A DNA stretch of 64,000 bases from Carallia brachiata (Eukaryota; Streptophyta; Magnoliopsida; Malpighiales; Rhizophoraceae): positions 9,123,879-9,187,878 of the forward strand of contig JADCRB010000016.1 of assembly GCA_021464245.1 (NCBI GenBank). The letters run 5' to 3'. Shown in pieces: positions 10,983-64,000 of the stretch. Below the pieces are notes generated by a model. The model was not told the origin of the DNA. It saw only the letters and a program-made list of their open reading frames with translations, and did no database searches. Both the position numbers and the translations under genes were made by a program. Within the stretch, counting starts at the first letter, position 1, and each line of letters starts with the position of its first letter.

Positions 10983-10983
10983 N

Positions 10984-17547: not shown

Positions 17548-17557
17548 CTAGCTGGCC

Positions 17558-20500: not shown

Positions 20501-23120
20501 GTGGAACGTAATTTCTTGTGGCAGCTAAAAAATTTAGATCCAGATATGGTCAGTAAGTGTGAACTTGTAGAAACAGGTTTGTATGGTTTTGACCTGCCAT
20601 AGTTATTAGTTAGTGTATTACATTGTTATGTGAGCTGCACGATTTGAGGTTGTTAAATATGAGAGCTCCACAATATTATTTTAAGCGAAAGTAGGCTGCG
20701 TTGCAGATATTAGGAAGATGAAGGGAGGTGCTTAGATTGCACACGAAGGTGGACAAAGAACAGAGTTGATCCTACTTAGGACCCTAACTTTATTATGATT
20801 TTTTTGTGCATAAGTAATGCTGATCTTCAAATTGATTATGTGAGTAAATCTTTTTAGCTGTAGGACCTATTTAATCAGGGCTTTTTGATGCAACACGTGT
20901 TGTTTTTGTGCATAATTGCCTTTCATGCCGCTTAAAGTCCCCCACTTTGTTGGTCATTGTTGTTTGTTTATTGTGCTTTTAATTCAGGTACATTGTCAGA
21001 ATAGTGTGGAATCGTATCTGGCTACTAGTTTAATTAATCTAGTGTGTTTCCCGGTTAAGAATATTTGAAAGTTATCATATAGGCTTGTTTTATATGAGCA
21101 TGTAGGTGGTATCAGTTATTACATCTTCCTGCAATTTCCTTATATTTGTTTGTATGGTCCTCCTCCTTGATATATGGGATGGTTTTTCTTATGTTGTCTT
21201 CAATATTTTTTTCTTCGATTTTCTGGCTCTTTCTCTTATTGATCCCTTTTCTTCTTTTGGGGGATGTCAGAGATTTATTATGGGTATAATGTTTGATGAA
21301 GTGTTTCTCGTCAATGATGAAGTTTCTGTCTTATTATTTACTGGATGTTTTTTTTTTTTGGGTGGGGGGAGGTGGCGTTGGGGGTTGTCGTTCCTCTGAT
21401 TCCTTGCATGATCTTGAAGCTATTTGTTATTGGAGCTGCTTTAACTGAAGTAGTCTACACCTTTGTCAAAAATTATTGTAAATTTTAGCATTACTATTGA
21501 ACTCACTTGATTCTGATAGATTCTGTTTTCAGCAATCTGCGGGTTCATCAATGTCTTTGGTTACATATGGGGAACTGAGTTGGCAATTCTGATGGGAAAT
21601 TGAAGTGTTTGCTGTCAATTTGGTGGCATCTATAATAAAATATTTTTATACTGTACTTGAAAGTGGTTTCTGCATATTGTTTTGTTTTTTTGTTGGCCGG
21701 TTCAATATGTGTCCATGGTATCAATGTGTACAATAACGGGTTACTGTACACTTTGTTTGGACTTAGTTCTTGGGTTTCATTTTTGATGCAGGAGCATTCC
21801 TCTTTAATTAGTTATTTTATATTTTATTAGTTATTAGTTTTAGTTAGGAGTCATGTGATTAGCATGCGACAATTTAATTAGATAGATGGCTAGGATTAGT
21901 TAGCGTTTGATTTAATCAAGGGTTGAGATTCTCTCTAATAATAACTCTAGTATAAATAGTGTAGTTGCTGGCCAGCTTTATCAGTTTTGATTCTTCAGAA
22001 GCAACGTTTCTTGGAGTTTTGTGGTTTTCTCTAAACCCTAACACTAATTATCTTGTTCCGCTTCAATTTTCTACCCAAAACTTAGCTTTAATTCAGTTTC
22101 TCTACACATTCTGCTTCCCAGTCAACAAGTGGATGCGTGGTGAATATGATTGTGTTTGTTAATTTGCTTACAAATAAATTTTGCTTTTTGGATCTTTTGT
22201 AGGTTAAGAATATGACAGGTGATATTCAGTTAATATTGGATTCACTGAGGGCTTCAACTGATCTAGAAGTGCAGGTACCTGTCCTTTTGCTTTCTTTAGC
22301 ATGTACCATAAAATCACAAATTACTGCCGAATGTAACTGAATTTGATTAGTCCCCTGATTTTGGAATTTTATAATTGGAGTTTATATGTGTGGTTTGTGG
22401 CAAGTAACCACACTTCTCTGACTATCAATTAATGTGAAAGAGCTAGTTGTAACTTTGTACAAATATTTCTTTTTTGGATCATTTGGAGGCCCATTGGATC
22501 TAGGTTATGCCAGGTTTTTGGCATCTCACAAATTTCTGCACCGAACTCTTTTGGCATTCTAACCTAAGACCTCTGAGTGGGAATGCCAGATTGTTAGCTA
22601 TCGGGATGTCTCCCAATGTTATCTTACTATCAATGATGTGCTTGAGCTACCTGTATCGTATCACCATATCAAAAATTTCTTTTGGGGTTACCAGGAGGAC
22701 CAGTTGATTTGGCCCATGCAATGGGTAGTCTTTCCTATCTTTTAAATTTTCACACCCCCTGAGGGTTTAATCAGTGACATCTAAGTTGGAATCTTGAGTT
22801 TTTAGGTGGTGAGATGTCTCGCTGGGGACTACAATCAGCATATCAAAATTTATAGAATTTGCCCTTTTGAGTCATCTAGTAGACTGACACGTTGAAATTT
22901 AATGCAGGATGACAAAGTGAGGAGGCGTCATGACTGGATGAAATGGATGAGTAGTTCAAGTCAGCATTTCAGCAATCCAGGGGTGCAATCGGCTGGTGAA
23001 TCAAGTTACAATATGCTGGCTACTTCGTTTAAAAAGATTGCTGTGGATGAATTGAGTGGTAGCCAAGACAGCATGACAGCTAAATCTTCCCTTCATTCGG
23101 AGAATGTTCCCTTGAGTTGA
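17558..23120 (+). CDS. LARP1: La-related protein 1 (plant LARP1b/c type), six exons, 536 aa
   Basis: Cytoplasmic RNA-binding protein of the LARP1 family; known members act in mRNA translation and decay. Exons inferred by splice sites and frame: 17558-18058, 18382-18970, 19067-19211, 19327-19417, 22203-22274, 22908-23120; all introns GT-AG, and phases join without a break (1611 nt with stop). Residues 36-44 read SPWAQVVRG, a motif I associate with plant LARP1. The middle (about 180-360) is Pro/Gly/Arg-rich and disordered, with a run of seven prolines and RG/RGS stretches. The La motif spans about 399-480: HQIEYYFSDANLVKDEFLK, GWVPITLIAGF, then VKNMTGDIQLILDSL and VRRRHDWMKW. There is no DM15 repeat region, so it matches the short plant LARP1b/c form, not LARP1a. 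Intron 4 is long (2785 bp). The start is the first ATG of an upstream-open exon; a second ATG lies two codons later. Confidence 0.93.
20465..20552 (+). other. candidate cassette (poison) exon in LARP1 intron 4
   Basis: An 88-nt stretch is preceded by a polypyrimidine tract ending TTGTTTTGTAACAG and followed by the consensus donor GTAAGT. Entering in the phase of exon 4 it is fully open (29 codons, starting SLWEEGYVNLRF). Because 88 is not a multiple of three, joining it to exon 5 yields AGT then TAA, stopping translation inside the La motif. Inclusion would therefore give a truncated, decay-prone transcript. This is predicted from sequence only. Confidence 0.35.
21793..22165 (+). mobile_element. 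possible LTR-like insertion in LARP1 intron 4
   Basis: A block in the long intron resembles a short LTR: TTAGTTATTAGT-rich start, a TATAAATAG box near 21952, then an RNA-leader-like region with ACCCTAACAC. I could not find clear TG..CA termini or a target duplication, so the boundaries are rough and the call is weak. Confidence 0.25.
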
Positions 23121-24690
23121 TTGCCCTGTCACTAATCTCTCAACTGGGGTTTTCTGAAGATACAAGGTCAGAAAACTGACCAATCTCTGCTCCATTAAGT
23201 TAAAGAACATCTTTCAGAATGATACATTTGTTCCTGGAGGAAAGGGTTATGAATGATGACGCGAGGTGGGGAGCATCTCCATTTACATTTGTCCATTGTC
23301 GTGCCTATTTTAAGAGGATTGATGGGCGCGTGGAGGAAAACAAAATAACATAGACATTTATTTGGGGAGAAAAAAAAACCGAAAAAAAAAAAAAAAAAGT
23401 AAAAAAGAAAAAAGAAAATAACTCTGGCCGTGTGCACCACAGAATTATAAGATTTTTTTGGTTTTTGTATAGCATGGTTTGACTTGGATGATTATTTCTT
23501 GTTTTTCTTTTTATGTTCATGTTTCTCTATAACATTTTTGTTTCTTTAAAAAAAAAAAAATTCCTTCTCTTTTACCCTTGTGGTGGTATATTCAGGATGG
23601 AAGAATTCGAGCTATCCTCGTTGGAAAGCTGTTGTTGAAAACGGTAGCCATTAGAAGCTCTTATGTTAAGCGGAGTTGCGTGGGCTTCTTGATGAGTTTC
23701 TTATTTTAAGATCCTAGCCTTTTTTTAATCTATTTATGTAAAAACATAAGTAAGTCTATTAAAAATACAATTGTAGGGCGACATTTTTATATATAATTCA
23801 AATGGCTAATAAAAATCAGCATATATTAAAGAAGAAAATGATAATTTAAATCATGAAAATCCAATATTAGGTCTTTTTCTTTTTAACACAAAAAAAATTT
23901 ATTATGAGTATGTCTATTATTGAATGTATGAGTTAAAGTTGGAGTAATTATGTATTAGTGCTTTATTCAACCCTGTAAAATAAGAACTTCTTATCTAAGT
24001 ACTGTTAGATTCAACGAGTCTCTCTCAAGTTGATTATTACGATTATCAAATCTGGAATTATTTATACAGCCCATTAATTGAGGATTAAAAGAGACTTTTT
24101 TGGTGTGTAGTTGCTAAGATTTTAATTTAGATTATGAATGAGAGAGATACGTCGAATTGTTATCATGTTATCATCTCGATTAATAAAATTTAATAATAAG
24201 TCTTAATATGTGAAACTCGGGATAAGTCTATAATTAAGATTGTAGTAATTGGAAAATCTGAATTTGGTTCAGTGATTAAAAAAAGGGTTGGAATAAAGTC
24301 GCTACTAAGTGAGTTGGTAACTGATACAACAAGATTTACCAACATTATTTTCTGCTCTCGTGAAAATTTGGAGTGCGGTGGGAAGCACTCCCACCCCAAA
24401 CACACCATTAAAAGACTTCGTAGCATTTAACACATAATTTCTTTCTGAGTTAATTCTTTAAAAATATACTAATTTTTTAATTTTATAATAAATTTTTTAT
24501 TTTTCTAAATATATCAATAACAATTCAATTGGTATTAGATCTAACACCGTCGTGATATGATAACTGCATAAACATGCCACATATAAAAAAATTATTTTTA
24601 AAATCATGTTAAAAAAAAAAAAAAAAAAGAAAATCTCAAGGCAAAAACAAAAAAAAAACAATCTTTTTTTTTTTTTTCTTTTTTCCCCAA
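23121..24690. other. LARP1 3' flank and intergenic DNA
   Basis: The first ~600 bp probably include the LARP1 3'UTR and have A-rich runs (23364-23420, 23548-23560). Further on the DNA is AT-rich. A local inverted repeat GGAGTGCGGTGGGAAGCACTCC sits near 24370. No protein-like ORF or RNA gene recognised. Confidence 0.5.
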
Positions 24691-28378: not shown

Positions 28379-29433
28379 TGTAAATATGAAAATAAAAAAA
28401 ATCAAATTCAAAGTCAGTACAGACTTTGAAAAGAAAAGGAAAAAAAATAAAAAACATTCAGTGGGTTGGCCAACTACCCAAAGAAGAAGAAAAAAAAATG
28501 GATGAAATAATAGTTGGGGATGACCCATAAATAGGTCATTCCTTTGCTATTCTTACACAACAACTTGAGAGAGGAATTATAAACAGCATTGGCAAAGAAT
28601 TTTTAAAACTTTTTCCTTACATTTTCGTATTTTGAGCGTATGTTTTTTAGACGTTGTTGTGTTAGATCTTCCATATCAAAAGCCCAAAATATTTAATATA
28701 CTTATTTCTAAACGTATTTTGAGTGTATACTTTCTGGTCGCTACTGCTTGGGATGTTAAGAGGCAAAATTCAAAATATTAAAATATTAAATATTCGTCTG
28801 AGATTAATCTCCATACGGCCCTCAGCGAAGCCAATTTACCTGAGACTAAAAGCTCCTTACGGCCTTCAGCCAAGGTACACTAGTCTGAGTGAGATGAAGT
28901 CTCGGCTCTCAGTGGAGTCAAACTAGTCTATTTAAGATCAAACTCATACGACCCTTATTGAAATCAAGCCAATCGGATTGAGATCAAGTCTCTACGACCC
29001 TCATCGGAGTTACGGTATCCATCTGAGATCAAACCTCTATAGCCCTCAGTGGAATCCACCGATATCAAGCCCAAATGACCCTTAGTAGAGTTAAACCGGT
29101 CCATTTGACATTAAGTCAACACGGCCTTTAGTGAAGTCAATTTATTCCAAATGAGATCAAGTTTTTACGACCCTCACCGGAGTTACGGCATTCACCGGAG
29201 ATTAGCCTTGACCCTTAGTAGAATTTATTCCCTCAGTTTAAGCGCAAATTTGGAAATTCAATCTCTTTTGTTCAAGATTAAACCTACGTGCCTTCGACGA
29301 AACAACAAAGGAGTATGAATCAGAGGATCTACACAGAGATCGACCCCACATAAATTCAAAATTCTCATATGTAATTTATATATGTATTTTCGAAATCTAA
29401 CTATTTCAAGTTTGAAACTTACAGCCCCTCACA
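28379..29433 (+). repeat. LTR (5'), subfamily 1
   Basis: Begins TGTAAATATGAAAA and ends CAGCCCCTCACA. It contains CCTATAAATAGG-like promoter sequence near its start (28529-28541) and a degenerate repeated phrase of the type GAGATCAAGCC..CGGCCCTCAGTGGAGTCAA in its second half. That phrase identifies all LTR copies in the window. Confidence 0.85.
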
Positions 29434-29438
29434 ATTTT

Positions 29439-29455
29439 TAGCACGTTCGGTGGGA
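29439..29455 (+). other. primer-binding-like site
   Basis: TAGCACGTTCGGTGGGA, a mutated form of the TGGCACGCTCAGTGGGAC that follows other LTR copies (34626, 42483 region, 59612). It sits 5 nt after the LTR, the usual position for a tRNA primer site. The match to tRNA-Arg known for Ogre/Tat elements is my guess and needs an alignment. Confidence 0.55.
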
Positions 29456-30046
29456 TTTCTTTGCATCCCATCTCTTGCTCCTTAAAAAAAAAATTAAAAA
29501 GAGGTTGGTGGCACAGTGGCCATTTCATGGCCTATTTATAGGTTATGAAATGACCAACATCAACACAACCCTAGGGGCAAAAAGAAAAAAAAAAAAAAGA
29601 GCAAGAATCTAACACATTACTAGTACTAAGAAAGAGTAAGATCGCCTTCGATAGCAAAAAGATAATTGCTCTATCGCCTGCATGAATTATCCTACCTAGG
29701 TACGTAGGTCACAAACTTGTGCACAAACACGGTTTCTCGTCGCCAAAACAAAAAAAAAATAGAGAAATTGCAGCTCACACAGCAACAAAAATTTTCACCT
29801 GACTCTTTTGCTGAATGGAGAAGTCGACCATCCACCTCAACCGAAATTGGGGTTAAGGTGTCAAATGAATGCCCAAATCCTCAACTCGGGGATAAATTCG
29901 AACTCAAAGCCCAAATCCAAATTCCAGCTTAAAGTCCAAATCCGGACCCAAGCCCAAAGCCCAAATCCAAATTCTAACTCAAAATGCAAATCCAGATTCG
30001 AGGGTAAAGCTCAAACCCTGACTCAACTCAGCAATTCAACAGTTCA

Positions 30047-31200
30047 GCAAATTAGACTCTTGCCTCGCACGAGTATAAGAGACAAAAAATTCAAAACCAG
30101 ACTTATGCCTCGCACGAGTATAAAAGGAGAAAAGTTTAGAACTAGACTTCTGCTTCACACGAGTATAAAAGTTTAAATTCAAACTCAAAGCTCAAATCCA
30201 AATTCCAACTCAAAGTCCAAATCCGGACCCAAGCCCAAAGCCCAAATCCAAATTCCAACTCAAAGTGCAAATCCAGATTCGGGGGTAAAGCTCAAACCCT
30301 GACTCAACTCAGCAACTCAATAGTTCAGCAAATTAGACTCCTGCCTCGCACGAGTATAAGAGGCAAAAAATTCAAAACCAGACTTCTGCCTTGCACGAGT
30401 ATAAAAGGAGAAAAGTTTAGAACCAGACTCCTGCTTCAGATGAGTATAAAAGCGACAACTCAGCAGCTAAAACAAACTCCTGCCTTGCATTAGTGTAAAA
30501 GGAAAACAGCTAATACAGACTCTTACCCCACACGAGTATAAAAGGTAAACAACAGAAGCAGACTCCTTCCTTGCACGAGTATAAAAGCCAATAACTCAAC
30601 AACAGACTTTTGCCTCGCATGAGTATAAAAAGCGAACAGTTAAAGCAAACTTTTGCCTCTCATGAGTATAAAAGGCGACAACACAATTCAACACTCCTGC
30701 CTTGCATGAGTATAAAAGGTGAAAAGCTCAGAAAACAAAAGCACACTTATGTCTCGCATGTGTATAAAAGGCAAATAGCTCAGCAGTATATGCACACTCC
30801 TTCCTCGCACCAGTATAAAAGGCGACGACACAGTTTAACACTCCTGTCTTGCACGAGCATAAAAGGTGAACAATTCAATACAGCAATATAGACTCCTACT
30901 TCGCACGAGTATAAAAGGCGACAGCTTAGCAAAATTCAAACTCTTACATTGCACGAGTATAAAAGGCAACAACTCAGCAAAACAAAAGTAGACTCTTAGT
31001 ATGTAGGAGTATAAAATGCGAGATGACAACAACAAAACAACACCCTTGACCTGCTAAAGTATAAACTGTAAACGACACTAGAAAATCATGACCTAGTCCA
31101 AAACTCCTGACCCGTATAAACTGTGAACGACCCAAAAAATAAAAAATCAAGACCAAGTACAAAACTCCTGACCCACATAATTATAAACTGTGAACGGCCA
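30047..31200 (+). repeat. TATAAAAG-box minisatellite, block 1
   Basis: About 20 degenerate units of 40-60 bp with the core CTCGCACGAGTATAAAAGG, each unit ending in a variable AACAGCTCAGCAA-type spacer. The TATAAAAG core is much better kept than the spacer. The last units change to GTATAAACTGTGAACG just before the WUS-like segment. Confidence 0.9.
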
Positions 31201-31229
31201 AAAAGATAAAAAATAGTTGAAGGTTTGAG

Positions 31230-31990
31230 TCTAAGTCATTATTCCAATCTCAACCTTTTACTCGTTTTTACCATGCCTCAAGCTTTTGCATCATTTCAGC
31301 AAAAAAAATGGAACCATTGGTAGAACTTCAAGACAAGGAAGAGGATAGGTCACCATGCACTAGATGGCAACCAAGTCCAATGCAATTGCGAATCTTGGAA
31401 GAGTACTTCTGTGGCAATGAAGGCACTTGTCCTAGTTTATCACATATCTCCCAACTTGTTTCGTGACTGCGGCTGTACGGAGTAGTCGAAACAAAAAATG
31501 TGTACTTATGGTTTCAAAATTAGAGAAATATGGAAAGAGCAACACAGAGAGCTGCTATTTCTACCACACAGTCTATTTCTACCATCGTAGTTGTTCCTAT
31601 GGTAGATTTTATCAGTATGGCTTCGTCCTCAAATGAAGTGAGTTGGAGCTCCACCACTACCATTGTCCCTCAAGGCTATTTCGACCAAATTATAGCCTGC
31701 TACAATACGCATACTAGTTCTGGAGTTTCTACTCTTAATCATACGAAACCTCAAGCTCCAACCAGGGATTCACCCTTTATGGGTACTTCCCACTAGGAGG
31801 AAGCCGCTCCGCCGAAACTCTACCTCTCTTTCCAGTATACCTTGACGACCTCAATCAGCCAGAAAATTCTAGTAACGTCAACATCACCAGCCCATCGAAT
31901 GAGAACTCGGTAGACTTGGAGCTACGCCTCAGGCCCCACGAGGTCGGCCAACAAGGGAAAGGTGCAGCAACTTTTACGGTACTGCATTGA
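31230..31990 (+). pseudogene. captured WUSCHEL-clade homeobox gene remnant, copy 1
   Basis: One frame from ATG 31308 runs through a WOX homeodomain at 31359-31550: TRWQPSPMQLRILEEYF, then LRLYGVVETKNVYLWFQN, then MERATQR. It is broken only by TGA at 31464 (Arg codon CGA in other copies) and TAG at 31521, and stays open to 31796. After a frame change the WUS-box TLPLFP is at 31817-31834 and an EAR-type LELRL at 31916-31930, both in one frame that stops at 31988. Homeodomain, WUS-box and EAR in this order are the signature of WUS-clade WOX repressors of stem-cell fate. Helix-to-helix spacing equals that of WUS. The homeodomain is uninterrupted by an intron; sequence just before the ATG (TTTCAG) resembles a splice acceptor. 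Non-functional as it stands. Confidence 0.85.
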
Positions 31991-32236
31991 CTTTTCCAAC
32001 ACTTGTCAGCCATTGCCTCGTTTGTATCTTAAAGTAGAAAAAGACGTGAATGAGGACCCCACATGATCCAGCATGTACTCTTTTTGACTTTTGCAAAAAA
32101 AAAAAAAAAACGGTAGCTTTTGTTGTTTATATATTTCCTACATTTTCAAGTTATGGAACTCATACCTTAGCCCTTCATTCTCTTCGAAGAGAGAAAATGG
32201 CTGGTTCGTGTACTCTTCTTTTCAGGAAGTTCTCTA

Positions 32237-32730
32237 ATGAAGAAACCAGAGACACACAAGTTAGAAAGAGAAAGACTCGTTCTCTTTGAGGGACCTTTAA
32301 AAGCCCTCGAATCTCAACCTCTAATGCCATCATCGTTGATGAAGTTTCAACCACTCTCCTTATTTTGCATTTATCACAATGCGCAGAAAAGTTGTGATCA
32401 CCTCATGGGATCGCAGATATGGCGACACATAGAGAAGTCCCAACTACTCTCTTTACATCACGACATACAAAGGAATCATAACTACAACCCATCTTTCTGT
32501 GAGTAGGCTTTGTTGTACTATGGTACTGAACCTTTTTCATGAGCAGGTTCAAGTTTTTGTCTACTGGATCATCATTATCTAAATCATGAAACTTCAAGTT
32601 CTATAAAGTATCCTTTGCGAGCTATGGAAGCTCAAGAGCAGTAGGGCTAGTCAGAGATAAAGACTTTAAGATTCAATATCTGTCAAGACATCTCAAATCT
32701 CAAGCTGGACTTCAAGACTTGATTTGAATT
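32237..32730 (+). pseudogene. second conserved retroelement frame, unknown family, copy A
   Basis: The frame starting MKKPETHKLERER is open to 32506; further on, pieces such as FYKVSFASYGSSRAVG continue the same product after indels. Equivalent frames occur at 48337-48570, 51348-51617 (minus strand), 57030-57287 and, degenerate, 39166-39760 and 63050-63450. Shared phrases include EKSQLLSLHHDIQRNHNY and SLCELALWFYG. I do not recognise the family. Conservation of one frame across copies hints at former coding, but may be shared descent only. Confidence 0.45.
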
Positions 32731-32756
32731 GCGTTCCAAAGTTCAGCCAAACCAAA

Positions 32757-32774
32757 CCTTGAAGTGGGGGCATT
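32757..32774 (+). other. polypurine tract before 3' LTR
   Basis: TTGAAGTGGGGGCATT abuts the TGTAAATATG start of the LTR at 32775. The same tract precedes the LTRs at 41176, 57425 and 63550 and, in reverse, 39148. This is where plus-strand priming would occur and it fixes element polarity. Confidence 0.75.
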
Positions 32775-33831
32775 TGTAAATATGAAAACAAAGAGGAAGC
32801 AAATTCAAAGTTGATACTGACTTTGAAAAGAAAAGAAAAAAAAAAGAAAACTTCAAAGGGTCGGCCAACTACCTAAAGAAGAAAAAAAAAAAAAGGCTGA
32901 AATAATAGCAAGGGAAGGCCTATAAATAGGTCATCCCCTCTGCCATTCTTGCACAACAACCTGAGAGAAGAATTGCAAAAACCATTTGCAAAGAACTCTC
33001 AAAACTTTCTCCTTACATTTTCATATTTTAGGTGTATGCTTTTTGGACGTCATTGAGTTAGATCTTCTAGCTCGAAAGCCCAAAATATTTAACATACTCA
33101 TTTCTAAACATATTTTAGGTGTATTTTCTATAGTCGCCACTGATTGGGATCTGCAAGAGTAAAAATTTAAAATATTAAAATATTAAACATCCATTTGAGA
33201 TTAAGCCCCAACGACCCACAGCGGAGCCAATCCACCTAAGACTAAATCCCTTGTGGCCCTGAGCGAAGCTACACCAGTCCGAGTGGGATCAAGCGTCGGC
33301 CCTCAATGGAGGCAAACCAATCTATCTGAGATCAAACTCATATGACCCTCATCAGAATCAAGCCATTCTGATTGAGATCAAGTCTCTGCGACCCTCACCG
33401 GAGTTACAAAATCCATCTGAGATCAATCTTCTATGGCCCTCAGTGGAATCCACTTAAGATCAAGCCCCAACGGCCCTCAATGGAGTTAAACCGATCCATC
33501 TGAGATCAAGCTCATACGGCCCTAAGTAGAGTCAAGCCATTCTGAACGAGATCAAGTCTCTATGACCCTCACTAGAGTTATGACATTCACCTTAGATCAA
33601 GCCTTGGCCCTCAATAGAATTTATTCCCTCAGTTCAAGAGCAAGCTGTGAAAATTCAATCTCTTTTGTTCAAGATCAAGTATATGTGGCCTTTGACAAAA
33701 TCACTAGGGATCACTAATCAGAGAATATACACAGAGATCGACCTTACATAAATTCAAAATTTTCATATGTAAATTGTATTTGTACTTTTAAAATCTAACT
33801 ATTTCAGACTCGAAACTTACAATCCTTTACA
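32775..33831 (+). repeat. LTR (3'), subfamily 1
   Basis: Same ends and internal phrases as the LTR at 28379; ends ATCCTTTACA. Only 8 bp separate it from the next LTR at 33840. Confidence 0.85.
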
Positions 33832-36240: not shown

Positions 36241-36279
36241 AAAGGTAAAAAACATTTGAGAGTTTGAGTCTGAATCATT

Positions 36280-37594
36280 ATTTCAATCTCAACTTACCGC
36301 ACCTTAAGCTTTTATGTCCTTTCAGCAAGAAAGATGGAACAAGTTGCAGAACCTTAGGACAAGGGAGAGGATAGGTCATTACACACTAGATGGCGACCGA
36401 GTTCAATGCAATTGTAAATCTTGGAAATGTATTTCCACAACAATGAAGGTACTTGTCTTAGTTTTGTTAGGAAATATAAGTAAAATTAACAGAAAATTGA
36501 TGCAAATAAAATAAATAAAGGATATGAAATGATGTTTGAGGCGTGCAAGACACTGTCCTTAAGTATAGTTTCTGCCCCTGTTCTCAAATCGAGATAGTGT
36601 AGCAGGTTGCAATGGCTACCCTCCAAGGATACAATAGACCTTCCCACTAATGTGCACTTCAAATAGTGAGATAACAGAAACAACTCTAATCTTGATTAAC
36701 CTAGCAAAATGCAGCAAATAAGAATGTGCAGGAAGAAAAGTATCTGAAAGTTTGTACTTTCTAGAGAAGGAGGAGATACTTATATACTGGTTTAGCCTTT
36801 AAAGTTCATAAAAGTAAATAATGACCATAAAGGTGAATAATGGATAAAATAATGGTGGTTAAATAGCTGTAACTGCTGAAACGGCTAGTTTTCCGACAAT
36901 AAAAAACAGTTAGTCAAAAACGGCTAGTTTGACTGAAGAGTCTGAATGATCTAAAAAATATTGGGCTCAGGGATGGACCGGCCAAGGCCGGTACAGTCCA
37001 CTACGTAAGGTCGTATGGGCCTGCTCCTATCGGGCCCGAGACTGGGTTTCACAACACCTCTTATGGATCTTTTGTTTTGTGAAAATGTAAGAAAAATATT
37101 GATTTATAAACAAGTGGTACATAACCTTTTTATTCCATGTGGGATTCTATTATCCATATATATACTCTTTTACTAAGTAGTACTTGACTTTTCTTTCCCA
37201 TGTGGGATTCAAGTCTCCTTATATACTCTTTTATTAAGTACTATTTGGCTTCTCCTTCCCATGTGGGATTCAAGCCTTTTAAAATATCCTTTATTCTTCC
37301 AACAAGTTTATCACAGCTCTCCCAACTTGCTTCACGACTGCGGCTATATGGAGTAGTCAAGTCAAAAAATGTGTATTTCTTGTTTTATAATCGGGGAAAT
37401 ATGGAGAGAGTAACATAGAGAGCTGTTGTTTCTACAGCATAATTTGTTTCAACCACCGCAACTGTTCCCATTGTAGATCTCACTAACATTACTACACCCT
37501 CAAATAAAGTTGCGGGTTCAAGCTCCACCACCGCAATGGCCCCTCAAGGTTATTCTGGTCAAAACTATAGCTTGCTGTAGTACACATACGAGAA
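36280..37594 (+). pseudogene. WUS-like remnant copy 2, split by a solo LTR
   Basis: The homeodomain is present in two pieces. The first (36336-36464) holds the start and helix 1. The second (37310-37430) reads LASRLRLYG and KNVYFLFYNRGNMERVT. A solo LTR lies between them. The Arg codon at the helix 2 end is still CGA, but W and Q of the WFQN core are changed to L and Y and frameshifts are present. The segment is cut at about 37594, where DNA of opposite polarity begins; WUS-box and EAR are missing. Confidence 0.78.
36465..37304 (+). mobile_element. solo LTR, 840 bp, inside WUS-like copy 2
   Basis: Target duplication AGTTT at 36460-36464 and 37305-37309; termini TGTTAGGAA and TTCCAACA form an inverted repeat. 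The interior has three copies of a ~65-bp repeat containing CCCATGTGGGATTCAAG (37133-37280). Size and ends suggest a Ty1/copia-type LTR left by LTR-LTR recombination, though the superfamily cannot be proved without internal sequence. Confidence 0.88.
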
Positions 37595-38395
37595 ATATAT
37601 ACGCAACAAAAGCTGCCTTTTTTTTTATTTCTTTTTTACAAAAGTCCAAAAAGAGGATATGTTGGATCAAGTGGAGTGCTCCTTCACGTCCATTTTTATC
37701 ATAAGGGACAAACAAGGCAATGGCCGCTGCGTATTACATAAGTCAAGGCAATAATGTGTGCCGTAAAAGTCGTTGCACTTTATCGTTGTTAGCCGACTTT
37801 ATGGAGCCCGAGGCGTAGTTCTAAGTCAATTGCATCCTCGTTTGGCAGGCCGGTGACGTCGACACTATTGAAACTTTCCTATTGATTGATGTCGCCAGGG
37901 TGTATTAGAAAGAGATGTAGAGTTTCGCAGGAGTGGCTTCCTCTTGACGCGAAGTTTCCTCCTAGATTGAAGTGCCCATGAGAGATGAATCCCTAACTGG
38001 AGCTTGAGGCTTCGTATGATAGGAAGTAGAAGTTCTAGAACCAGTATGCGTAGTACAGCAAGCTACAATTTTGGTCGAAATCGCCTTGAGGGACCATGAC
38101 AACGGTGGAGCTCGGACTCACTTCATTTGAAGATGAGGTCATACTGGTGACATCTATTATGGGAATAGTTACAATGCTAGAAACAACTGTGCTGTAAAAA
38201 TAGCAGCTCTCTGTATTGCTCTCTCCCCATTTCTCTGGTTTTGAAACTAGGGATACACATTTTTTGTTTCAACTGCTCCGTATAGCCGCAGTCACGAAGT
38301 AATTTGGGAGAGTTGTGATAAACTAGGACATGTACCTTTATTGTTATGGAAGTACTCCTCCAATATTTGTAGTTGCATTGGAATTGGTCATGTTT
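37595..38395 (-). pseudogene. WUS-like remnant copy 3 with 3' flank
   Basis: Minus-strand copy. The EAR-type motif LELRL is encoded at 37810-37824 in an EDAIDLELRLGLHKVG context ending with a stop; the WUS-box is altered to TLHLFL near 37915; the homeodomain lies about 38200-38370 with a TGA at the helix 2 end and a premature TAG before FQN. Its 5' end is joined directly to a truncated LTR at 38396. Together with copy 2 it makes an inverted WUS-like pair. Confidence 0.78.
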
Positions 38396-44350: not shown

Positions 44351-44479
44351 AGACAACAATTGTTCACCTTTTACACTCGTGTGAGGTAGGACTTTGATTT
44401 GCTATTCGCCTGCACTGTTGGTGTTGAACATTTAACAGTTTGTACTTGTGTGGTGTTTGCTTTTTATCCTTATTGGCCA

Positions 44480-45110
44480 ATATTGTGGAGCGCGACGGGT
44501 AGCTCCAAGTCAATTTCATCCTCGTTTGGCGGGCTAGTGACGTCGACACTACTGGACCCTTCCTGTTGATTGACATTGCTAGAGTGTACTGGAAAGAGCG
44601 GCCTCCTCCTAGTGCGAAGTACCCATAAGGGGTGAATCCCTACTTGGAACTAGATGCTCCATATGATATAAAGTAGAAACTCGAAAGCCAGTATATGTAC
44701 AGACTATAATTTTGATCGAAATTTCCTTGAGGGACCATGACAGTGGTGGAGTTTGGACCTGCTTCATTTGAGGACGAAGTCATACTGGTGAGATCTACCA
44801 TGATAACAACTGCGATGGTGGAAACAGATTGTGTTGTAGAAACAATAGCTCTCTGTGTTACTCTCTCCCTATTTCTCCAGTTCTGAAACCAGAAATACAT
44901 ATTTTTTGTTTCAACTACTCCGTACAGCCATAGTCGCAAAGCAAGTTGGGAGAGTTGTGATAAACTAGGACAAGTACCTTCTTTGCTGCGAAAGTACTCC
45001 AAGATTTATAGTTGCATTGGACTTGGTCACTATCAAGTGCGTGATGGCTTATCCTCTTCCTTGTTTTGAGATTCTACTATTGGTTCCATCTTTCATGTTG
45101 AAAAGATGCA
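44480..45110 (-). pseudogene. WUS-like remnant copy 4, longest intact homeodomain frame
   Basis: A 120-codon frame (44640-45002) reads LYGVVETKNMYFWFQN followed by RNRERVTQR, with the Arg codon CGA intact, so helices 2-3 of the homeodomain have no stop. Helix 1 is shortened by a small deletion and the N-terminal arm has stops. Downstream it keeps SSSNEAG and MVPQGNFDQNYSL, seen in the other copies, then PLFPVH at about 44587-44601 after a deletion, and DLEL near 44490. It is the best source for the recognition helix of the captured gene. Confidence 0.85.
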
Positions 45111-45179
45111 AAAGCTTGAGGTGTGGTAAAAATGAGTAAAATATTGAGACTAGAATAGTGATCCAGACTCAAATCCTCA

Positions 45180-46195: not shown

Positions 46196-46680
46196 ACCAT
46201 TCGCTTTTTATACTCGGCCAAGTCAGGAGTCTAATTTGTTGAATTGTTGACCTTTTATACTCGTGCGAGTATGGAGTCTATTTTAGTTATTCACTTTTTA
46301 TACTCGTGCGAGATAAGAGTCTACTTCAGCTGATCGCCGTTTACACTTGTGCAAGACTGGAGTTTAATTTGCTGTTTATTTCTTCGCCTTTTATACTTAT
46401 GCTAGATAGGAGTTTGATTTGCTGAATTATTCGCCATTTATACTCGTGCGAGATAGGAGTTTGATGTGCTAAACTGGTTGTCTTTTATACTCGTGCGAAG
46501 TAGGAGTCTGATTTTACTGTTCGTTTTGTCTACTTCAGCTGTTTGCCTTTTACGCTCGTGCAAGGTAGGACTTTGATTGGCTGTTTACTTTTTATACTCG
46601 TGCGAGATAGGAGTCTACTTTTGGTGTTGAATGTTTCTCTTTTTATACTCGTGTGGTGTTCACCTTTTATCCTTGTTGGC
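46196..46680 (-). repeat. TATAAAAG-box minisatellite, block 5 (inverted)
   Basis: About ten units, same core as block 4, immediately next to WUS-like copy 5. Confidence 0.85.
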
Positions 46681-47180
46681 CAACCTCCATGGAGCGCGAG
46701 GCATAGCTCCAAGTCAATTGCGTCCTCGTTTGGCAGTTGATGTCTCCAGAGTGTACAGGAAAGAGAGGCAGGGTTTCGCCGAAGCGGTTTCTTCCTAGTG
46801 CGAAGTACCCATAAGGGGTGAATCCCTAGTTAGAGTTGGAGGACGAAGCCATACTAGTGAGATCTACTATGGGAATTGCTGCGATGGTAAAAACATATTG
46901 TACTGTAGAAGCAACAACTCTCTTTGTTGCTCTCTCATTATTTCTCTGGTTTTGAAATTAGAAATACACATTTTTTTGTTTTGACTGCTTCGTATAGCCA
47001 CAGTCGCAAACCAAGTTGGGAGAGCTGTGATAAACTAGGACAAGTGCCTTCTTTGCTGTGAAAGTACTCCTCCAAGATTTCCAGTTGCATTGGACTTGGT
47101 GGTCATCTAGTGCGCGATGGCTTATCCTCTCCATTGTCTTGAGGTTCTACCACTAGTTTCATCTTTCTTATTGAAAGGAT
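46681..47180 (-). pseudogene. WUS-like remnant copy 5, perfect WUS-box
   Basis: Minus strand. The WUS-box reads TLPLFPVHSGDIN at 46736-46774 (TLPLFP itself 46757-46774), the cleanest of all copies. The EAR-type motif LELCL is at 46698-46712, nearer than usual because of a deletion. The homeodomain (about 46915-47105) keeps the Arg codon CGA. A deletion removes the region between the homeodomain tail and the glycine-rich stretch. Confidence 0.82.
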
Positions 47181-47454
47181 GCAAAAGCTTGAAATGTGGT
47201 AAAAACGAGTAAAAGATTGAGACTGGAATAATGATGTAGACTCAAATCCTTAATTTGGATATGGATTGGGCCTGTGCATGAGCTCTAACAATTTTCTTTC
47301 GATTTTTGTTCTTTTTTAATTTTTTTGAATTTTTTATTTTTCGAATTTTATTCTTTTTTCTTTTGAAATTTTTTTTTATTTTTTTTACTTTTTTCATTTT
47401 TTTTTATGAATGTTTTTTTTTATTTATGTAGAGTAATACTTTAGAAATTTACTA

Positions 47455-47660
47455 CTTGATCGGGCCAAGTCAGGTGCCTTTTTGGTATGACAGCATGTGA
47501 GCATTGTTGGTGTAGACTTTTTGAACTAGGTATGGCCCGTCCCATTTGGAAGTGAGCTTGTCGCTAGGTTGGTGCTTTGGTCAAGTTAAATGGGAATTGT
47601 GCCCCTAACTTAAAGCACTGGAGTGGAGGGACTTGGTAGGGATTTGACTTGCTGCCCCCA
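47455..47660 (-). pseudogene. Ty3/gypsy integrase C-terminal (GPY) remnant
   Basis: The minus strand encodes DKLTSKWDGPYLVQKVYTNN in one frame, ending at a stop after QKGT. This matches the GPY/F motif found at the C-terminus of Ty3/gypsy integrases, shortly before the pol stop. It is joined directly to element leader sequence (47660-48060), so gag, protease, RT and most of integrase have been lost. It ties the family to gypsy. Confidence 0.7.
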
Positions 47661-52079: not shown

Positions 52080-52830
52080 AGTCAAGACAGTATCGTAAAA
52101 GTTGCTGTACCTTATTCTTTAGTCAATCTCGTGGGGCCCGAGGCACAGCTCCAAGTCACCGAGTCCTTATTCGGCGGGCTGGTGATGTTAACGTTACTAG
52201 AACTTTTTGGTCAATTGATGTCACCAGGGTGTACTGAAAAGACATGTAGAGTTTTGTCAGAGTGGCTCTCTCTTAGGGCAAGGTTTTTTCACGGGGTGAA
52301 GTACCCGTAAGGAATAAATCCATAACTGAAGCTGGAGCCGTATGATAGGAAGTAAAACCTCTCGAACTAGTATGCATACTGCAGCAAGCTGTAGTTTTGG
52401 TCGAAGTAGCTTTGAGGGACTATTGTAGCGGTGGAGCTCGGACACACTTCATTTGAGTACGAAGCCATAATGGTGAGATATACCATGGGAACAGTTGTGA
52501 TGGTAAAAACAGACCGTGCTGTAGAAACAATAGCTCTCTGTGTTGCTCTTTCTCTATTTCTCCGATTTTAGAACTAGAAATACACATTTTTTTTGTTTCG
52601 ACAGCTCTGTACGGTCCCAATCATGAAACAAGTTAGGAGAGGTGTGATAAAATAGGATAAGTGCTTTTATTATGGCAGAAGTACTCCTCTAAGATTTGTA
52701 GTTGCATTGGGCTTGGTCGCCATCTAGGGCGTGGTGACCTATTCTTTCCCTTATCCTGAGGTTCTACAACTAGTTCTAGCTTTCTTGCTAAAAGGATGTA
52801 AAAGCTTGAGGTATAGTAAAGACGGGTAAA
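52080..52830 (-). pseudogene. WUS-like remnant copy 6
   Basis: Minus strand. The homeodomain start is well kept: PRWRPSPMQLQILEEYF in a frame at 52633-52848. Helices 2-3 are in another frame with stops. The WUS-box has become TLHVFS near 52235-52252, and an LELCL-type EAR lies near 52155 after a one-base loss. It forms the left arm of a large inverted repeat with copy 7. Confidence 0.8.
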
Positions 52831-52889
52831 AGGTTGAGATTGGAGCAATGATTCAAACTCAAACTCTTAACTGTTTTGTACCTTTTTGG

Positions 52890-56250: not shown

Positions 56251-56329
56251 AAACGGTTAAAGGTTTGAGTCTGAGTCATTATTCTAGTTTCAACCTTTTA
56301 CTCGTCTTTATCACACCTCAAGCTTTTGT

Positions 56330-56625
56330 ATCCTTTCAGCAAGAAAAATGGAACCAGTGGTAGAACCTCAAGACAAGGGAAATGATAGGTCACTACGCAC
56401 TAGATGACGACCAAGTCCAATGCAACTGCAAATGTTGGAGAAGTACTTCTGCAACAATGAAGGTGTTTATCCTAGTTTATCACAAATCTACCAACTTGCT
56501 TTGTGACAACGGCTATACGAAGCAGTCAAAACAAAAAAATATGTACTTCTAATTTTAGAATCGGAGGAATATGGAGAGAGCAACTCAGAGAGCTATTGTT
56601 TATACAATATAGCCTATTTCTACCA
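56330..56625 (+). pseudogene. WUS-like remnant copy 7, truncated
   Basis: Begins with ATG and VVEPQDKGNDRS, a homeodomain with TGA in the N-terminal Trp codon and at the helix 2 end, and NMYF followed by two TAA/TAG stops in the WFQN core, then NRRNMERATQR. It is cut near 56625 within the serine/threonine tail. WUS-box and EAR are missing. Confidence 0.75.
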
Positions 56626-57424
56626 TTTCTACCTTGACTTTTCCAACACGCGTTGGCCACTACCTTGTTTTTCTTTTATAGCAGAAAGAAACACGAAGGA
56701 GGACCCACCTGATCTAGCATATCCTCTTTTTGACTTTTGCCAAAAAAAAAAAAAAAAACAACAAGTAGCTTTTGTTGGGTATATATTTTCCACATTCTCA
56801 AGTTACGGAACTCACAGCTTAGCCCTTCTTTCTCTCTAAAGAGAGAAAATGGCTTGTTCTGTACTCTATTTTTCAAGAAGTTCTATGATGAAGAAACTGG
56901 AGACACGCAAGCTAGAAAGAGAAAGATTCCTTCTATTCAAGGGATCTTTAAAAGCCCTCAAATCTTAGCCTCTGATACCATAATGGTCGATAAAATTCCA
57001 ACTACTCTTCTTAGTTCGCATCTATCACAATGTGCAGAAAGGTTGTGATCATCCTCTTGGGATTGCAAACATGGCGATGGACAGAGAAGTCCCAACTACT
57101 CTCCTTACATCACAACATACAGAGGAATCATAACTATGGGCCATCTTTCTGTAAGTGGGCCTTGTCATTCCATGGTATTGAACCTTCTCCATGCGGAGGT
57201 TCAAGTTCTTTGTCTACTGGATTATCCTCACCTAAAACATGGAACTTGAAGTTTTATAGAGTATCCTTTGCGAGCTATGGAAGATAAATAGCAGTCGGGC
57301 TAGTCGCAGATAAAGACTTCAAGATTCAATAGTTGTCAAGACGTCAAACTTCAAGCTGGACTTCAAGACTTGGTTTTAATTGCATCCCAAAGTTCTGCCT
57401 CACCAAGCCTTGAAGGGGGGCATT
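56626..57424 (+). mobile_element. retroelement 3' internal region with second conserved frame and purine tract
   Basis: Same block as 31990-32774. The frame at 57030-57287 (85 codons) contains EKSQLLSLHHNIQRNHNY and GGSSSLSTGLSSPKTWNLKF. The block ends with GAAGGGGGGCATT next to the LTR. Confidence 0.55.
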
Positions 57425-62019: not shown

Positions 62020-62800
62020 TGGTAAAAAATGGTCGAGGGTTTGAGTCTAAATCATAATTTCAGTCTCAACCTTTTACTCGTTTTTACCATGCCTCAGGCT
62101 TTTACGTCCTTTCAGCAAGAAAGATGGAACTAGTCGTAGACCTTCAAGATAAGGGAGAGGATAGGTCACCATGCACTAGATGGCGACCAAGCCCAATGCT
62201 ACTGCAAATCTTGGAGGAGTAGTTCAGCAACAAAGATGGTACTTATTCTAATTTATCATAGCTCTCGTAACTCGCTTCGTGACTGCGGCCATACGGAGCA
62301 GTCGAAACAAAAAATGTGTATTTTTGATTCCAAAACTGGAAAATAGGGAGAGAGCAACACAGAGAGCTGTTGTTCGTATAGCACAGCCTATTTCTACCAT
62401 CGCAGCTGTTCCTATGATAGATCTCGCCATTATGGCTTCATCCTCAAATAAAGCGGGTCTGGGCTTCACCATTGCAATGGTCCCTTAAGGCTACTTCAAC
62501 CAAAACTATCACCTGCTGTAGTACGCATACTAGTTCTTGAGGTTTTACTCTCTATTATATGGAGTCTCAATCTTCAATTAGGGATTCATCCCTTATTGGC
62601 ACTTCAATCTGGGACGAAACATCGCACTCGCAGGAAGCCACTCCGGTGAAACTTTAACTCTCTTTCTAGTGCACGTCAATGACGTCAATTAGTAGGAAAG
62701 TTCTAATAGCACTAACGTCACTAACCTACCAAATGAGAACTTGATTGACTTAGAGCTGCACCTCGAACCCTGCGAGGTCGGCCAACAAGGATAAGGTGCA
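62020..62800 (+). pseudogene. WUS-like remnant copy 8, full span
   Basis: Covers the whole captured gene. N-terminal region and homeodomain (CTRWRPSPMLLQILEE then a TAG stop; helix 3 frame-shifted, ending NRERATQRA), then AVPMIDLAIMASSSNKAG. WUS-box changed to TLTLFL at 62651-62668 and EAR-type LELHL at 62750-62764, again exactly 33 codons apart and in one frame, interrupted by a TAG. Confidence 0.82.
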
Positions 62801-63549
62801 ACAACTTTTACGGTACTACCTTAACTTTTCCAATGCCCATCGGTTGTCGCCTCATTTGTCTCTTATAGTAGAAAGAGACAAGAAGGAGGGCTCCACCTAT
62901 TTCAGAATATCCTCTTTTTGATTTTTGTGAAAAAAATCAAAAAAATAAGGCAAATTTTGTTGTGTATATATTTCCTGAATTATCAAGTCACGAAACGCAC
63001 CCCTCAGCTTTCTTTTTCAAAATATTCTCTAATTAAGAAGCTAGAGACACACAAGCTAAAAAGAGAAAAAGTCGAGAGATCCTCGAATTTCAACCTCTGA
63101 CGGCATCATAGTCGATGAAGTTTCAACTACCCTCCTTAGTTTACATCTATCACAACGTACAAAAAGTTGTGATCATCCTCATGGGTTCGTAGATGCGGCA
63201 ACAGATGGAGAAGTCCCAACTACTCTCCTTACGTCATAACATATAGAGTACATATAACTACAGCCTATCTCTGTGAGTTGGCCTTGTCTTTCCATGGTAT
63301 TGAACATTCTCCAAGGGGAGGTTCAAGTTCTTTATCTATTGGATCATCCTCACCTAAACCATGAAACTTCAAGTTTTATAAAGTATCCTTTGCGAGCTAT
63401 GGAAGCTCAACAGCAGTCGGGCTAGTCGGATGTAAAAACTTCAAGATTTAATATCCGTCAAGATGTCCAAAGCTTCAACCTAGACTTCAAGACTTGGTTT
63501 GAATTGCGTCCCAAAGTTCCACCTCACCAAGCCATGAAGTGGGAGCATT
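62801..63549 (+). mobile_element. retroelement 3' internal region
   Basis: Same block as 31990-32774 with a decayed second frame (KKLETHKLKRE near 63034) and the purine tract GAAGTGGGAGCATT just before the LTR at 63550. Confidence 0.6.
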
Positions 63550-63680: not shown

Positions 63681-64000
63681 GAATAGTTGCGATGGTAGTA
63701 ACAGACTTTGCTGTAGAAACAGTAGCTCTCTGTGTTGCTTTCTCCCTATTTTTCCGATTCTGAAACAGAAGTACACATTTTTTGTTTCGATTACTCCGTA
63801 CAGCTGCAATCGCGAAGCAAATTGGGAGAGCTGTTATAAACTAGGACAAGTATCTTCGTTATTGCAGAAATACTTCTCTAAGATTTGTAGTTGCATTGGA
63901 CTTGGTCACCATTAGTGCGTAGTGACCTATTCTCTCCCTTGTCTTAAGGTTCTGCCACTAGTTCCATCTTTCTTGTTGAAAGAATGCGAAAGCTTGAGGT
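63680..64000 (-). pseudogene. WUS-like remnant copy 9, runs off the window
   Basis: The minus strand encodes LYGVIETKNVYF and, one frame over, WFQN-like text followed by NRKNREKATQR; a single-base loss in the Trp codon breaks the frame. The helix 2 Arg codon is intact CGA. The N-terminal part continues toward 64000. Confidence 0.78.

What the first reader, a model, noticed from the sequence alone, without database searches (positions are those of the whole stretch)
31230..31990. A WUSCHEL-clade homeobox gene captured and multiplied by an LTR retroelement
Nine segments (31230, 36280, 37595-, 44480-, 46681-, 52080-, 56330, 62020, 63680-) encode the same protein remnant. Seen directly: a WOX-spaced homeodomain (for example LYGVVETKNMYFWFQN in copy 4), a WUS-box TLPLFP (copies 1 and 5), and a C-terminal EAR-type LELRL (copies 1 and 3). 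WUS-box and EAR are 33 codons apart in both copy 1 and copy 8. Known: this three-part order defines WUS-clade stem-cell regulators. Inferred: near full-length capture, because all copies sit at the same place between a minisatellite and the 3' internal region of the element. I know of no described plant element carrying a WUS gene.
Basis: partly seen in the sequence, partly recalled or inferred. Interest (0 to 1): 0.93.

Follow-up and report, generated by a model that had tools for sequence, protein, structure and literature searches.

The report
Jumping element carrying a stem-cell gene
In an unnamed plant, a virus-like jumping element has picked up a copy of what looks like WUSCHEL, the master gene of shoot stem cells, and spread it through the genome, many copies still readable, which raises the question whether the element uses it to reach the cells that become seeds.

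Summary
Nine segments encode decayed copies of one protein with a WOX homeodomain, WUS-box and EAR motif, in old, internally deleted LTR elements (LTRs of window element 1: K2P 0.22). The window's genome (337.5 Mb, plant, probably Malpighiales) shows more: 150 scored copies (the cap; 2308 first-look candidates) match an intact frame at 86-100% identity, 112 without internal stops. Young copies hold a WUS-like frame of about 207 codons downstream of integrase in a Ty3/gypsy element with two RNase H domains (Tat type). One insertion, itself lacking RT, has both LTRs, a CTCTA target-site duplication and LTR K2P 0.022. Homeodomain length (66), TLPLFP and C-terminal LELxL together point to WUS; trees alone do not decide. 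The frame lacks the host WUS gene's two introns, so cDNA capture is likely. Transmitted young lineages purge stops and frameshifts, but amino-acid constraint is weak (omega about 0.7-1) and the old subfamily shows no purge. I infer a frame kept, and perhaps used, by the element as a meristem regulator; a passive passenger is a serious rival. Precedent: a 2023 meeting report of LTR-flanked WOX copies in two Vigna species. Expression is untested.

The parts
28379..29433 (+). 5' LTR of window element 1 (TG...CA)
   Evidence: 80.5% identical to the 3' LTR, K2P 0.22; ends read by eye
29439..29455 (+). primer-binding-site-like stretch after the 5' LTR
   Evidence: resembles in place and sequence the stretch after the 5' LTR of L012
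29732..29851 (+). remnant of a frame that in L012 lies upstream of the gag-like frame (no Pfam match of its own)
   Evidence: tblastn 55%, E 2e-7; L012:7064-7516 without Pfam match
29893..31062 (+). minisatellite upstream of the WUS-like frame; many units contain TATAAAAG
   Evidence: TRF rows to 30823, further GTATAAA units to 31057; TATAAAAG 80 times in 15201-64000 against a shuffle mean of 4.1
31230..31990 (+). WUS-like copy 1 (ATG at 31308)
31356..31553 (+). 66-codon homeodomain of copy 1, with two stops (one before LRLYG, one after WFQN)
31817..31834 (+). WUS-box TLPLFP of copy 1 (another frame than the homeodomain)
31916..31930 (+). EAR motif LELRL of copy 1
31991..32774 (+). 3' internal region of element 1, ending in the purine-rich tract GAAGTGGGGGCATT
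32775..33831 (+). 3' LTR of window element 1
   Evidence: end read by eye
36269..37592 (+). WUS-like copy 2, in two pieces (36269-36464 and 37305-37592) around an insertion
37758..38388 (-). WUS-like copy 3, 5' part missing
44468..45161 (-). WUS-like copy 4; stop-free 121-codon stretch 44643-45005 with part of the homeodomain
46661..47240 (-). WUS-like copy 5, middle deleted
52082..52851 (-). WUS-like copy 6
56270..56626 (+). WUS-like copy 7, 3' half missing, followed by the 3' internal region and an LTR at 57425
62046..62817 (+). WUS-like copy 8
63690..63999 (-). WUS-like copy 9, runs off the window
47458..47577 (-). remnant of the frame that in L009 follows the integrase core
   Evidence: tblastn 72.5%, E 1.8e-15

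Best explanation
A Ty3/gypsy LTR retrotransposon of the Tat type acquired a spliced copy of a plant WUSCHEL gene and carries it as an extra sense-strand frame between integrase and the 3' LTR. Shown: the frame, its WUS-like motifs, its place in an LTR element, transposition of a frame-bearing copy (LTRs plus target-site duplication) and the high copy number. The window holds an old, internally deleted, decayed subfamily (W); the genome also holds a young subfamily (A) with intact frames. Inferred, and less sure: the frame is expressed, perhaps from TATA-type sites just upstream of its ATG. The protein would work as a small WUS-like DNA-binding repressor in shoot apical cells, where LTR elements can be transcribed and from which germ cells descend, so that a new insertion is more likely to be inherited. 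My separate odds: captured WOX frame in a Tat-type element 0.96, of WUS type 0.88 (lowered); frame kept by selection for at least part of its history 0.6; the meristem/germline advantage 0.33.
For: Open frames in same-strand elements with RT, RNase H, a second RNase H and integrase in L009 and L010. L012: two LTRs, CTCTA duplication, 17 mismatches in 768. 150 scored copies, 112 without internal stops by hand count, 2308 first-look candidates. WUS characters: W39-to-WFQN spacing 48 in the element, in 120 of 120 WUS-set proteins and 4 of 119 others; TLPLFP in 117 of 120 WUS-set proteins; C-terminal L[ED]LxL in 114 of 120 against 2 of 119. Among the 12 host WOX loci scanned ETLPLFP is in the two WUS genes only. 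Host WUSa has introns of 159 and 540 bp; the element frame has none. Homeodomain residues invariant in 10 WUS-clade homeodomains are kept 22 of 31 against 11 of 34 variable ones, p 0.003. Stops on internal A branches: 1 of 184 changes (stem 1 of 102) where 6.2% is expected; terminal A branches 18 of 450. Indels shared by 3 or more copies in frame 5 of 7, those in one or two copies 8 of 60, p 0.002. R38, Q89, N90 and R94, which read bases in WUS, stand in L010. LTR elements are up-regulated in vegetative Arabidopsis shoot stem cells (PMC7560203, passages).
Against: Amino-acid constraint is weak: omega about 0.76 on internal A branches (0.57 in the first 82 codons, 0.67 middle, 1.17 C-terminal part) and 0.99 on the A stem; net A-W difference per codon position 0.163/0.192/0.205, ratio 1.15 (bootstrap 0.78-1.7), in the homeodomain 1.0 (0.61-1.6). 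Internal W branches carry 12 stops in 104 changes, so the window subfamily shows no purge. The WUS-box varies: of 26 young loci whose frame stays open to LELxL, 15 read TLPLFP and 11 a variant such as TLSLFP, TLPLFL or ILPLFQ. Helix 3 of L010 lacks several residues invariant in the compared WOX (H91R, K92R, A93S, R96K, Q97P, K98A); R94 is K in L035 and M in window copy 1. Outside the homeodomain no alignment to host WUSa beats shuffles (430 of 1000 as good). WUS-site counts are not raised in 6 of 7 LTRs. Only 17 of 55 fetched copies had no stop and no frame-breaking gap against the L010 frame, and 2 of these lack the ATG. A homeodomain tree does not separate WUS from WOX3 as nearest kin. No expression data.
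Confidence: 0.55

Rival explanations
1. Passive passenger: the WUS-like cDNA was captured once and rode along without function; young copies look intact because they are young.
For: omega 0.7-1; no purifying signal between subfamilies A and W; stops on internal W branches; all nine window copies are broken; 38 of 150 scored copies have stops; WUS-box varies among open young frames.
Against: Stops and frame-breaking indels are rare on internal A branches compared with terminal ones or single copies; two subfamilies with a 33% DNA difference both show HD, WUS-box and EAR in order; WOX-invariant residues are kept preferentially.
Confidence: 0.37
2. The captured gene is another WOX (for example WOX3, WOX1 or WOX5 type), not WUS.
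For: Hits that bear a WOX number are mostly WOX3; HD identity to host WOX3 55% (with gaps) against 50% to WUSa; a clade of element and WOX3-like rows is not rejected (p-AU 0.44), nor is one with WUS (p-AU 0.42). An earlier rejection of the WOX3 clade (p-AU 0.004) was an artefact: one row of that group belonged with WUS.
Against: 66-residue homeodomain, TLPLFP and C-terminal LELxL occur together in WUS and rarely or never in the 119 listed others or the other host WOX loci scanned.
Confidence: 0.1
3. The copies act through RNA: small RNAs from the many element copies tune or silence the host WUS genes.
For: High copy number; in helix 3 the closest 21-mer of L010 and the host WUSa locus differs by only 2 bases.
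Against: Longest exact match of any of 64 element rows with either host WUS locus is 14 bases; this would not explain maintenance of the reading frame.
Confidence: 0.07
4. A local cluster of host WOX pseudogenes, not an element.
For: Nine copies in 33 kb.
Against: LTR pair, PPT and PBS-like site, a target-site duplication, copies on many contigs, no introns.
Confidence: 0.01

Closest known systems
LTR-amplified WOX genes of Vigna marina and V. riukiuensis (meeting report PMC10714607, Mob DNA 2023; passages seen)
   Same: WOX genes in many copies (over 1000 in V. riukiuensis), mostly flanked by identical LTRs with target-site duplications
   Different: Another plant order (legumes, if the host here is a malpighialean); the passages give neither the WOX type nor the element lineage; relation by sequence untested; no Vigna relative of the element frame among the 120 listed of 231 hits. 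Here two diverged subfamilies and the coding part of the carrier are seen.
Extra ORFs (eORF-3'F) of plant Ty3/gypsy and SIRE elements (Neumann et al. 2019, PMC6317226; passages)
   Same: Sense frame downstream of integrase in a Tat-type element; the authors suggest acquisition from multiple sources
   Different: The passages name plant mobile domain, Transposase_28 and Athila ORF-1 as common contents; no homeobox or WUSCHEL in the main text (supplements not seen). Their survey asked for at least 250 codons, so a 207-codon frame would be missed.
Orchid Ty3/gypsy (Tat) elements with an m6A RNA demethylase domain (PMC9289625; start of abstract and passages)
   Same: A Tat-family element that acquired a functional domain
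   Different: An RNA-modifying enzyme rather than a developmental transcription factor
WUSCHEL (structure paper PMC7203112, passages)
   Same: 66-residue homeodomain, WUS-box TLPLFP, EAR; R38, Q89, N90, R94 in L010
   Different: No introns, shorter (207 against 308 codons in host WUSa), about 50% homeodomain identity, part of a mobile element

Membership tests
WUSCHEL (WUS) | Homeodomain | tested here: met
   Pfam Homeodomain 2.3e-12, over the cut-off, for L010; 2.9e-7 for copy 1 read through with X
WUSCHEL (WUS) | 66-residue homeodomain with the inserted residue 54 | tested here: met
   Ungapped to WUS; spacing 48 as in 120 of 120 WUS-set proteins, 47 in 115 of 119 others. The residue is H or C, not Y.
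WUSCHEL (WUS) | WUS-box TLPLFP | tested here: met
   Window copies 1 and 5; 15 of 26 young loci with a frame open to LELxL, 11 with a variant, among them L010 (TLSLFP) and L009
WUSCHEL (WUS) | C-terminal EAR LELxL | tested here: met
   26 of 55 young loci in the homeodomain frame; window copies 1 and 3 LELRL
WUSCHEL (WUS) | Groups with WUS in a homeodomain tree | tested here: inconclusive
   Apart from WOX9 and WOX13 at 98/91; among the rest unresolved: a clade with WUS p-AU 0.42, with WOX3-like rows p-AU 0.44
WUSCHEL (WUS) | Stem-cell function | not testable with these tools
   No expression or plant data
Ty3/gypsy Tat lineage | RT, native RNase H, additional RNase H between RH and INT, integrase | tested here: met
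   RVT_1, RT_RNaseH, RVT_3/RNase_H, Integrase_H2C2, rve in this order in L009; RT, RH, aRH and a sub-threshold rve in L010
Ty3/gypsy Tat lineage | gag | tested here: inconclusive
   Retrotrans_gag in L012 at 2.9e-4, 21.4 bits, under the cut-off of 24.1
Ty3/gypsy Tat lineage | TG...CA LTRs, target-site duplication, PPT | tested here: met
   L012 with L076; which tRNA primes it was not tested
Ty3/gypsy Tat lineage | Groups with Tat in an RT tree | not tested
   No reference RT set used
LTR-amplified WOX of Vigna | WOX frame between LTRs with TSD, in many copies | tested here: met
   One copy with LTRs and TSD; copy number
LTR-amplified WOX of Vigna | Sequence homology with the Vigna copies | not testable with these tools
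   Vigna element sequences not at hand; no Vigna row among the 120 listed hits

The most novel reading that the evidence does not exclude
A retrotransposon lineage has made a WUSCHEL-derived transcription factor one of its own genes and has kept it for millions of years, as a tool to act on shoot stem cells and so gain entry to the plant germline.
Probability: 0.28. Interest if true: 0.93.

Novelty: new variant of a known kind. Interest (0 to 1): 0.77.

Why it matters
Plants set aside no early germline: gametes come from shoot meristem cells (recalled; also the abstract of PMC7560203). An element that carries the master regulator of that niche would be a direct case of a mobile element using host developmental control for inheritance. 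With the Vigna report it would also suggest that WOX capture by LTR elements recurs. Well over a hundred WUS-like frames matter too for anyone annotating or editing WUS in this plant. Intact frames make the question testable.

Tried and rejected
Local host gene cluster: rejected by LTRs, TSD, copy number and absence of introns.

Capture of WOX3 or another WOX: not favoured on the motif and length evidence, but the homeodomain tree does not exclude it. My first test seemed to reject a WOX3 clade (p-AU 0.004); on checking, that group contained P0055, which falls among WUS; without it the test gives p-AU 0.44.

Autoregulation through WUS sites in the LTRs: motif counts not raised in 6 of 7 LTRs; L009 alone has four TGAATTCA. 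Not pursued.

RNA silencing of host WUS: no exact match over 14 bases.

Purifying selection between subfamilies: looked for and not found over the whole frame or the homeodomain; only the first 17 codons show a third-position excess (net 0.010/0.058/0.192). The low terminal omega in the first 82 codons (0.46) was set aside because the copies were chosen by homeodomain score.

Naming the host: the closest WUS proteins are from Erythroxylum novogranatense, 64-66%, so Malpighiales is inferred; species unknown. A guess of Salicaceae in my notes is withdrawn.

A first protein search with a hand-made blend found nothing, which I wrongly took to mean that the database lacks plants; one search showed that it holds them.

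Copy number of the window-type subfamily elsewhere: not completed (below). No structure was predicted: the fold tool's list of allowed sources does not name loci from the fetch from genomes.

Literature: ten answered searches and one not accepted. Nine papers opened, each by passages only: PMC6317226, PMC10508981, PMC10714607, PMC6982007, PMC7203112, PMC9289625, PMC5501002, PMC6482515, PMC7560203. Of these only PMC10714607 describes WOX genes inside LTR elements. bioRxiv is not held, so the 2022 Vigna preprint it cites was not read.

Full report
1. What is in the window. blastn of the reported segment against the window finds all nine copies, 75-83% identical to copy 1. Their translations give one protein in pieces: a homeodomain of WOX spacing, TLPLFP, and LELRL 33 codons later in copy 1. 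Every copy is broken by stops or frameshifts. Copy 1 with X at its stops matches Pfam Homeodomain at 2.9e-7; its only PDB hits below E 0.01 are STENOFOLIA (5.8e-13, one gap) and WUSCHEL (6.6e-12, no gap).

2. The carrier in the window. Element 1 runs from 28379 to 33831. It has two LTRs of about 1.06 kb that are 80.5% identical (K2P 0.22), a PBS-like site after the 5' LTR, and a purine-rich tract GAAGTGGGGGCATT before the 3' LTR. I saw no target-site duplication. Between the LTRs lie a remnant of a frame that in L012 precedes the gag-like frame, a minisatellite, the WUS-like segment and a 3' region. tblastn with RT, RNase H, integrase and gag-like frames of L009 and L012 finds in the window only that frame and the frame after the integrase core, no RT, RNase H or gag domain. 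The window's elements are therefore old and internally deleted. TATAAAAG occurs 80 times in 15201-64000 against a shuffle mean of 4.1. The arrays lie on the strand of the next WUS copy except those at 43-44 kb, which have no plus-strand copy after them.

3. The rest of the genome. The window lies in G000:C58 of a 337.5 Mb assembly of 164 contigs. A homeodomain search scored 150 of 1347 candidates (its cap), many of them near-identical, stop-free and in 229-codon open frames. That list favours full-length, in-frame copies. Of 55 element loci that I fetched, chosen from the homeodomain list, 17 showed neither stop nor frame-breaking gap against the L010 frame, 15 of them with the ATG.

4. The young element. 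L009 carries, on the strand of the WUS frame and upstream of it, RT, native RNase H, a second RNase H (RVT_3) and integrase; L010 the same with a weak integrase-core match; L012 a gag-like frame below Pfam's cut-off. Several of these frames are interrupted. The order RT-RH-aRH-INT is that given for Ogre and Retand elements of angiosperms within Tat (PMC6317226, passages). L012 with its adjoining stretch has a TG...CA 5' LTR, a 768-bp 3' LTR, CTCTA on both sides, and 17 mismatches in 768 aligned bases (K2P 0.0225; 0.9 My at 1.3e-8, 1.6 My at 7e-9, 4.5 My at 2.5e-9 per site and year, rates recalled). L012 itself lacks RT. Its WUS frame lies inside those LTRs, so the frame moved with the element. 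L011, L013, L015 and L061 have the same aligned frame sequence, L061 with an extra 1-base insertion; the first three have different 3' flanks. In the four loci scanned, the ATG context is AAAGATGG, and TATA-like sites stand 94 and 118 bases upstream (95 and 119 in L014).

5. Why WUS. Among the host WOX loci that I fetched are two WUS genes (L022, L023) and WOX1, 2, 3, 4, 5, 9 and 13 types (names recalled); the host may have more. Of the 12 loci scanned, ETLPLFP is in the two WUS genes only; the others with a WUS-box read TLQLFP, TLELFP or ALPLFP. In 239 public proteins (the best 120 listed for the element frame and for host WUSa, one shared), homeodomain spacing 48, TLPLFP and a C-terminal L[ED]LxL mark the WUS set (120, 117 and 114 of 120) and not the others (4 of 119 with spacing 48, 2 of 119 with L[ED]LxL). 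The structure paper calls the inserted residue 54 WUS-specific (PMC7203112, passages). The element has all three characters, though its residue 54 is H or C and its WUS-box varies between copies. An earlier rejection of the second came from one misplaced row. Homeodomain identity leans to host WOX3 (55% against 50%), and the database hits with a WOX number are mostly WOX3.

6. How it was taken. Host WUSa has introns of 159 and 540 bp between homeodomain and WUS-box. In the element the same interval is one open frame of about 80 codons. Capture of a spliced RNA is the simplest account. Outside the homeodomain no similarity to host WUSa beats shuffles, so the frame has changed much since capture.

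7. Is it used? For use: on internal branches of subfamily A 1 of 184 changes makes a stop and on its stem 1 of 102 (6.2% expected), against 18 of 450 on terminal branches. After codon 82, where sampling is not biased by the homeodomain score, internal branches have 1 of 141 and terminal ones 13 of 305. Indels shared by three or more copies are mostly in frame (5 of 7), those in one or two copies mostly not (8 of 60), p 0.002; two of the shared ones may be alignment variants of one event. Residues invariant in ten WUS-clade homeodomains are kept 22 of 31 against 11 of 34. R38, Q89, N90 and R94 stand in L010. Against use: omega is 0.76 on internal A branches and 0.99 on the stem; internal W branches have 12 stops in 104 changes; the A-W split shows no excess at third positions over the whole frame; several helix-3 residues differ from the compared WOX; the WUS-box is altered in 11 of 26 open frames. 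I read this as a frame kept open in the young lineage with loose or changing amino-acid demands.

8. Mechanism proposed. LTR elements are among the transposons raised in vegetative shoot stem cells of Arabidopsis, whose descendants form gametes (PMC7560203, start of abstract and passages). A WUS-like factor made by the element in or near that niche could keep expressing cells stem-like or relieve silencing and so favour heritable insertions. Each of these steps is inference. Without expression data a passenger remains a serious rival.

9. Novelty. Extra frames in plant LTR elements are known, and orchid Tat elements took an m6A demethylase domain (PMC9289625). For WOX I found one precedent in ten literature searches: a meeting report on Vigna marina and V. 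riukiuensis (PMC10714607, passages). The element frame has no close relative in the protein database searched: best E 5.5e-15, and the 120 listed of 231 hits cover at most 56% of it; that search needs shared 5-residue words, and repeats are often left out of gene sets. New here are the WUS-type motifs, the Tat-type carrier, two diverged subfamilies and the tests of frame maintenance.

Noticed in passing
1-14914: Long G+C-rich satellite array with a 237-bp unit (about 60 copies), close to the element cluster.
   Followed up: no
17552-23200: Exons of a host gene that look like a La-related protein (LARP1 type, name recalled; no Pfam match in the two frames tested).
   Followed up: no
arrays at 30, 35, 43-46, 53-55 and 61 kb: Minisatellite units with TATAAAAG, mostly oriented with the WUS copies: a possible array of TATA sites upstream of the frame; in the four young copies scanned, two TATA-like sites only.
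   Followed up: partly
L009-L015, start of the 3' LTR: The first 250 bases of the LTR differ strongly between copies with similar WUS frames (different inverted and tandem repeats; LTR length 657-958 bp), as if the U3 part were exchanged or remade.
   Followed up: no
L012 (C97:4760500-4768500): A TSD-flanked copy in which a gag-like frame runs into the late pol region, RT missing, yet with an open WUS frame: a non-autonomous derivative.
   Followed up: partly
L022, L023: Two host WUS genes of three exons each, plus paired WOX1, WOX4 and WOX13 types, suggesting an old genome duplication.
   Followed up: no
window copies, first 17 codons of the frame: The only part of the frame with a clear third-position excess between subfamilies A and W (net 0.010/0.058/0.192), unexplained.
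   Followed up: no
L014, about 1-3370: A run of N of about 3.3 kb upstream of an open frame (withheld or a gap).
   Followed up: no
L013, 6285-6773 and 7402-7905, minus strand: Near this insertion: a frame with an HMG-box-like stretch and a copia-type gag-like frame (read by eye).
   Followed up: no
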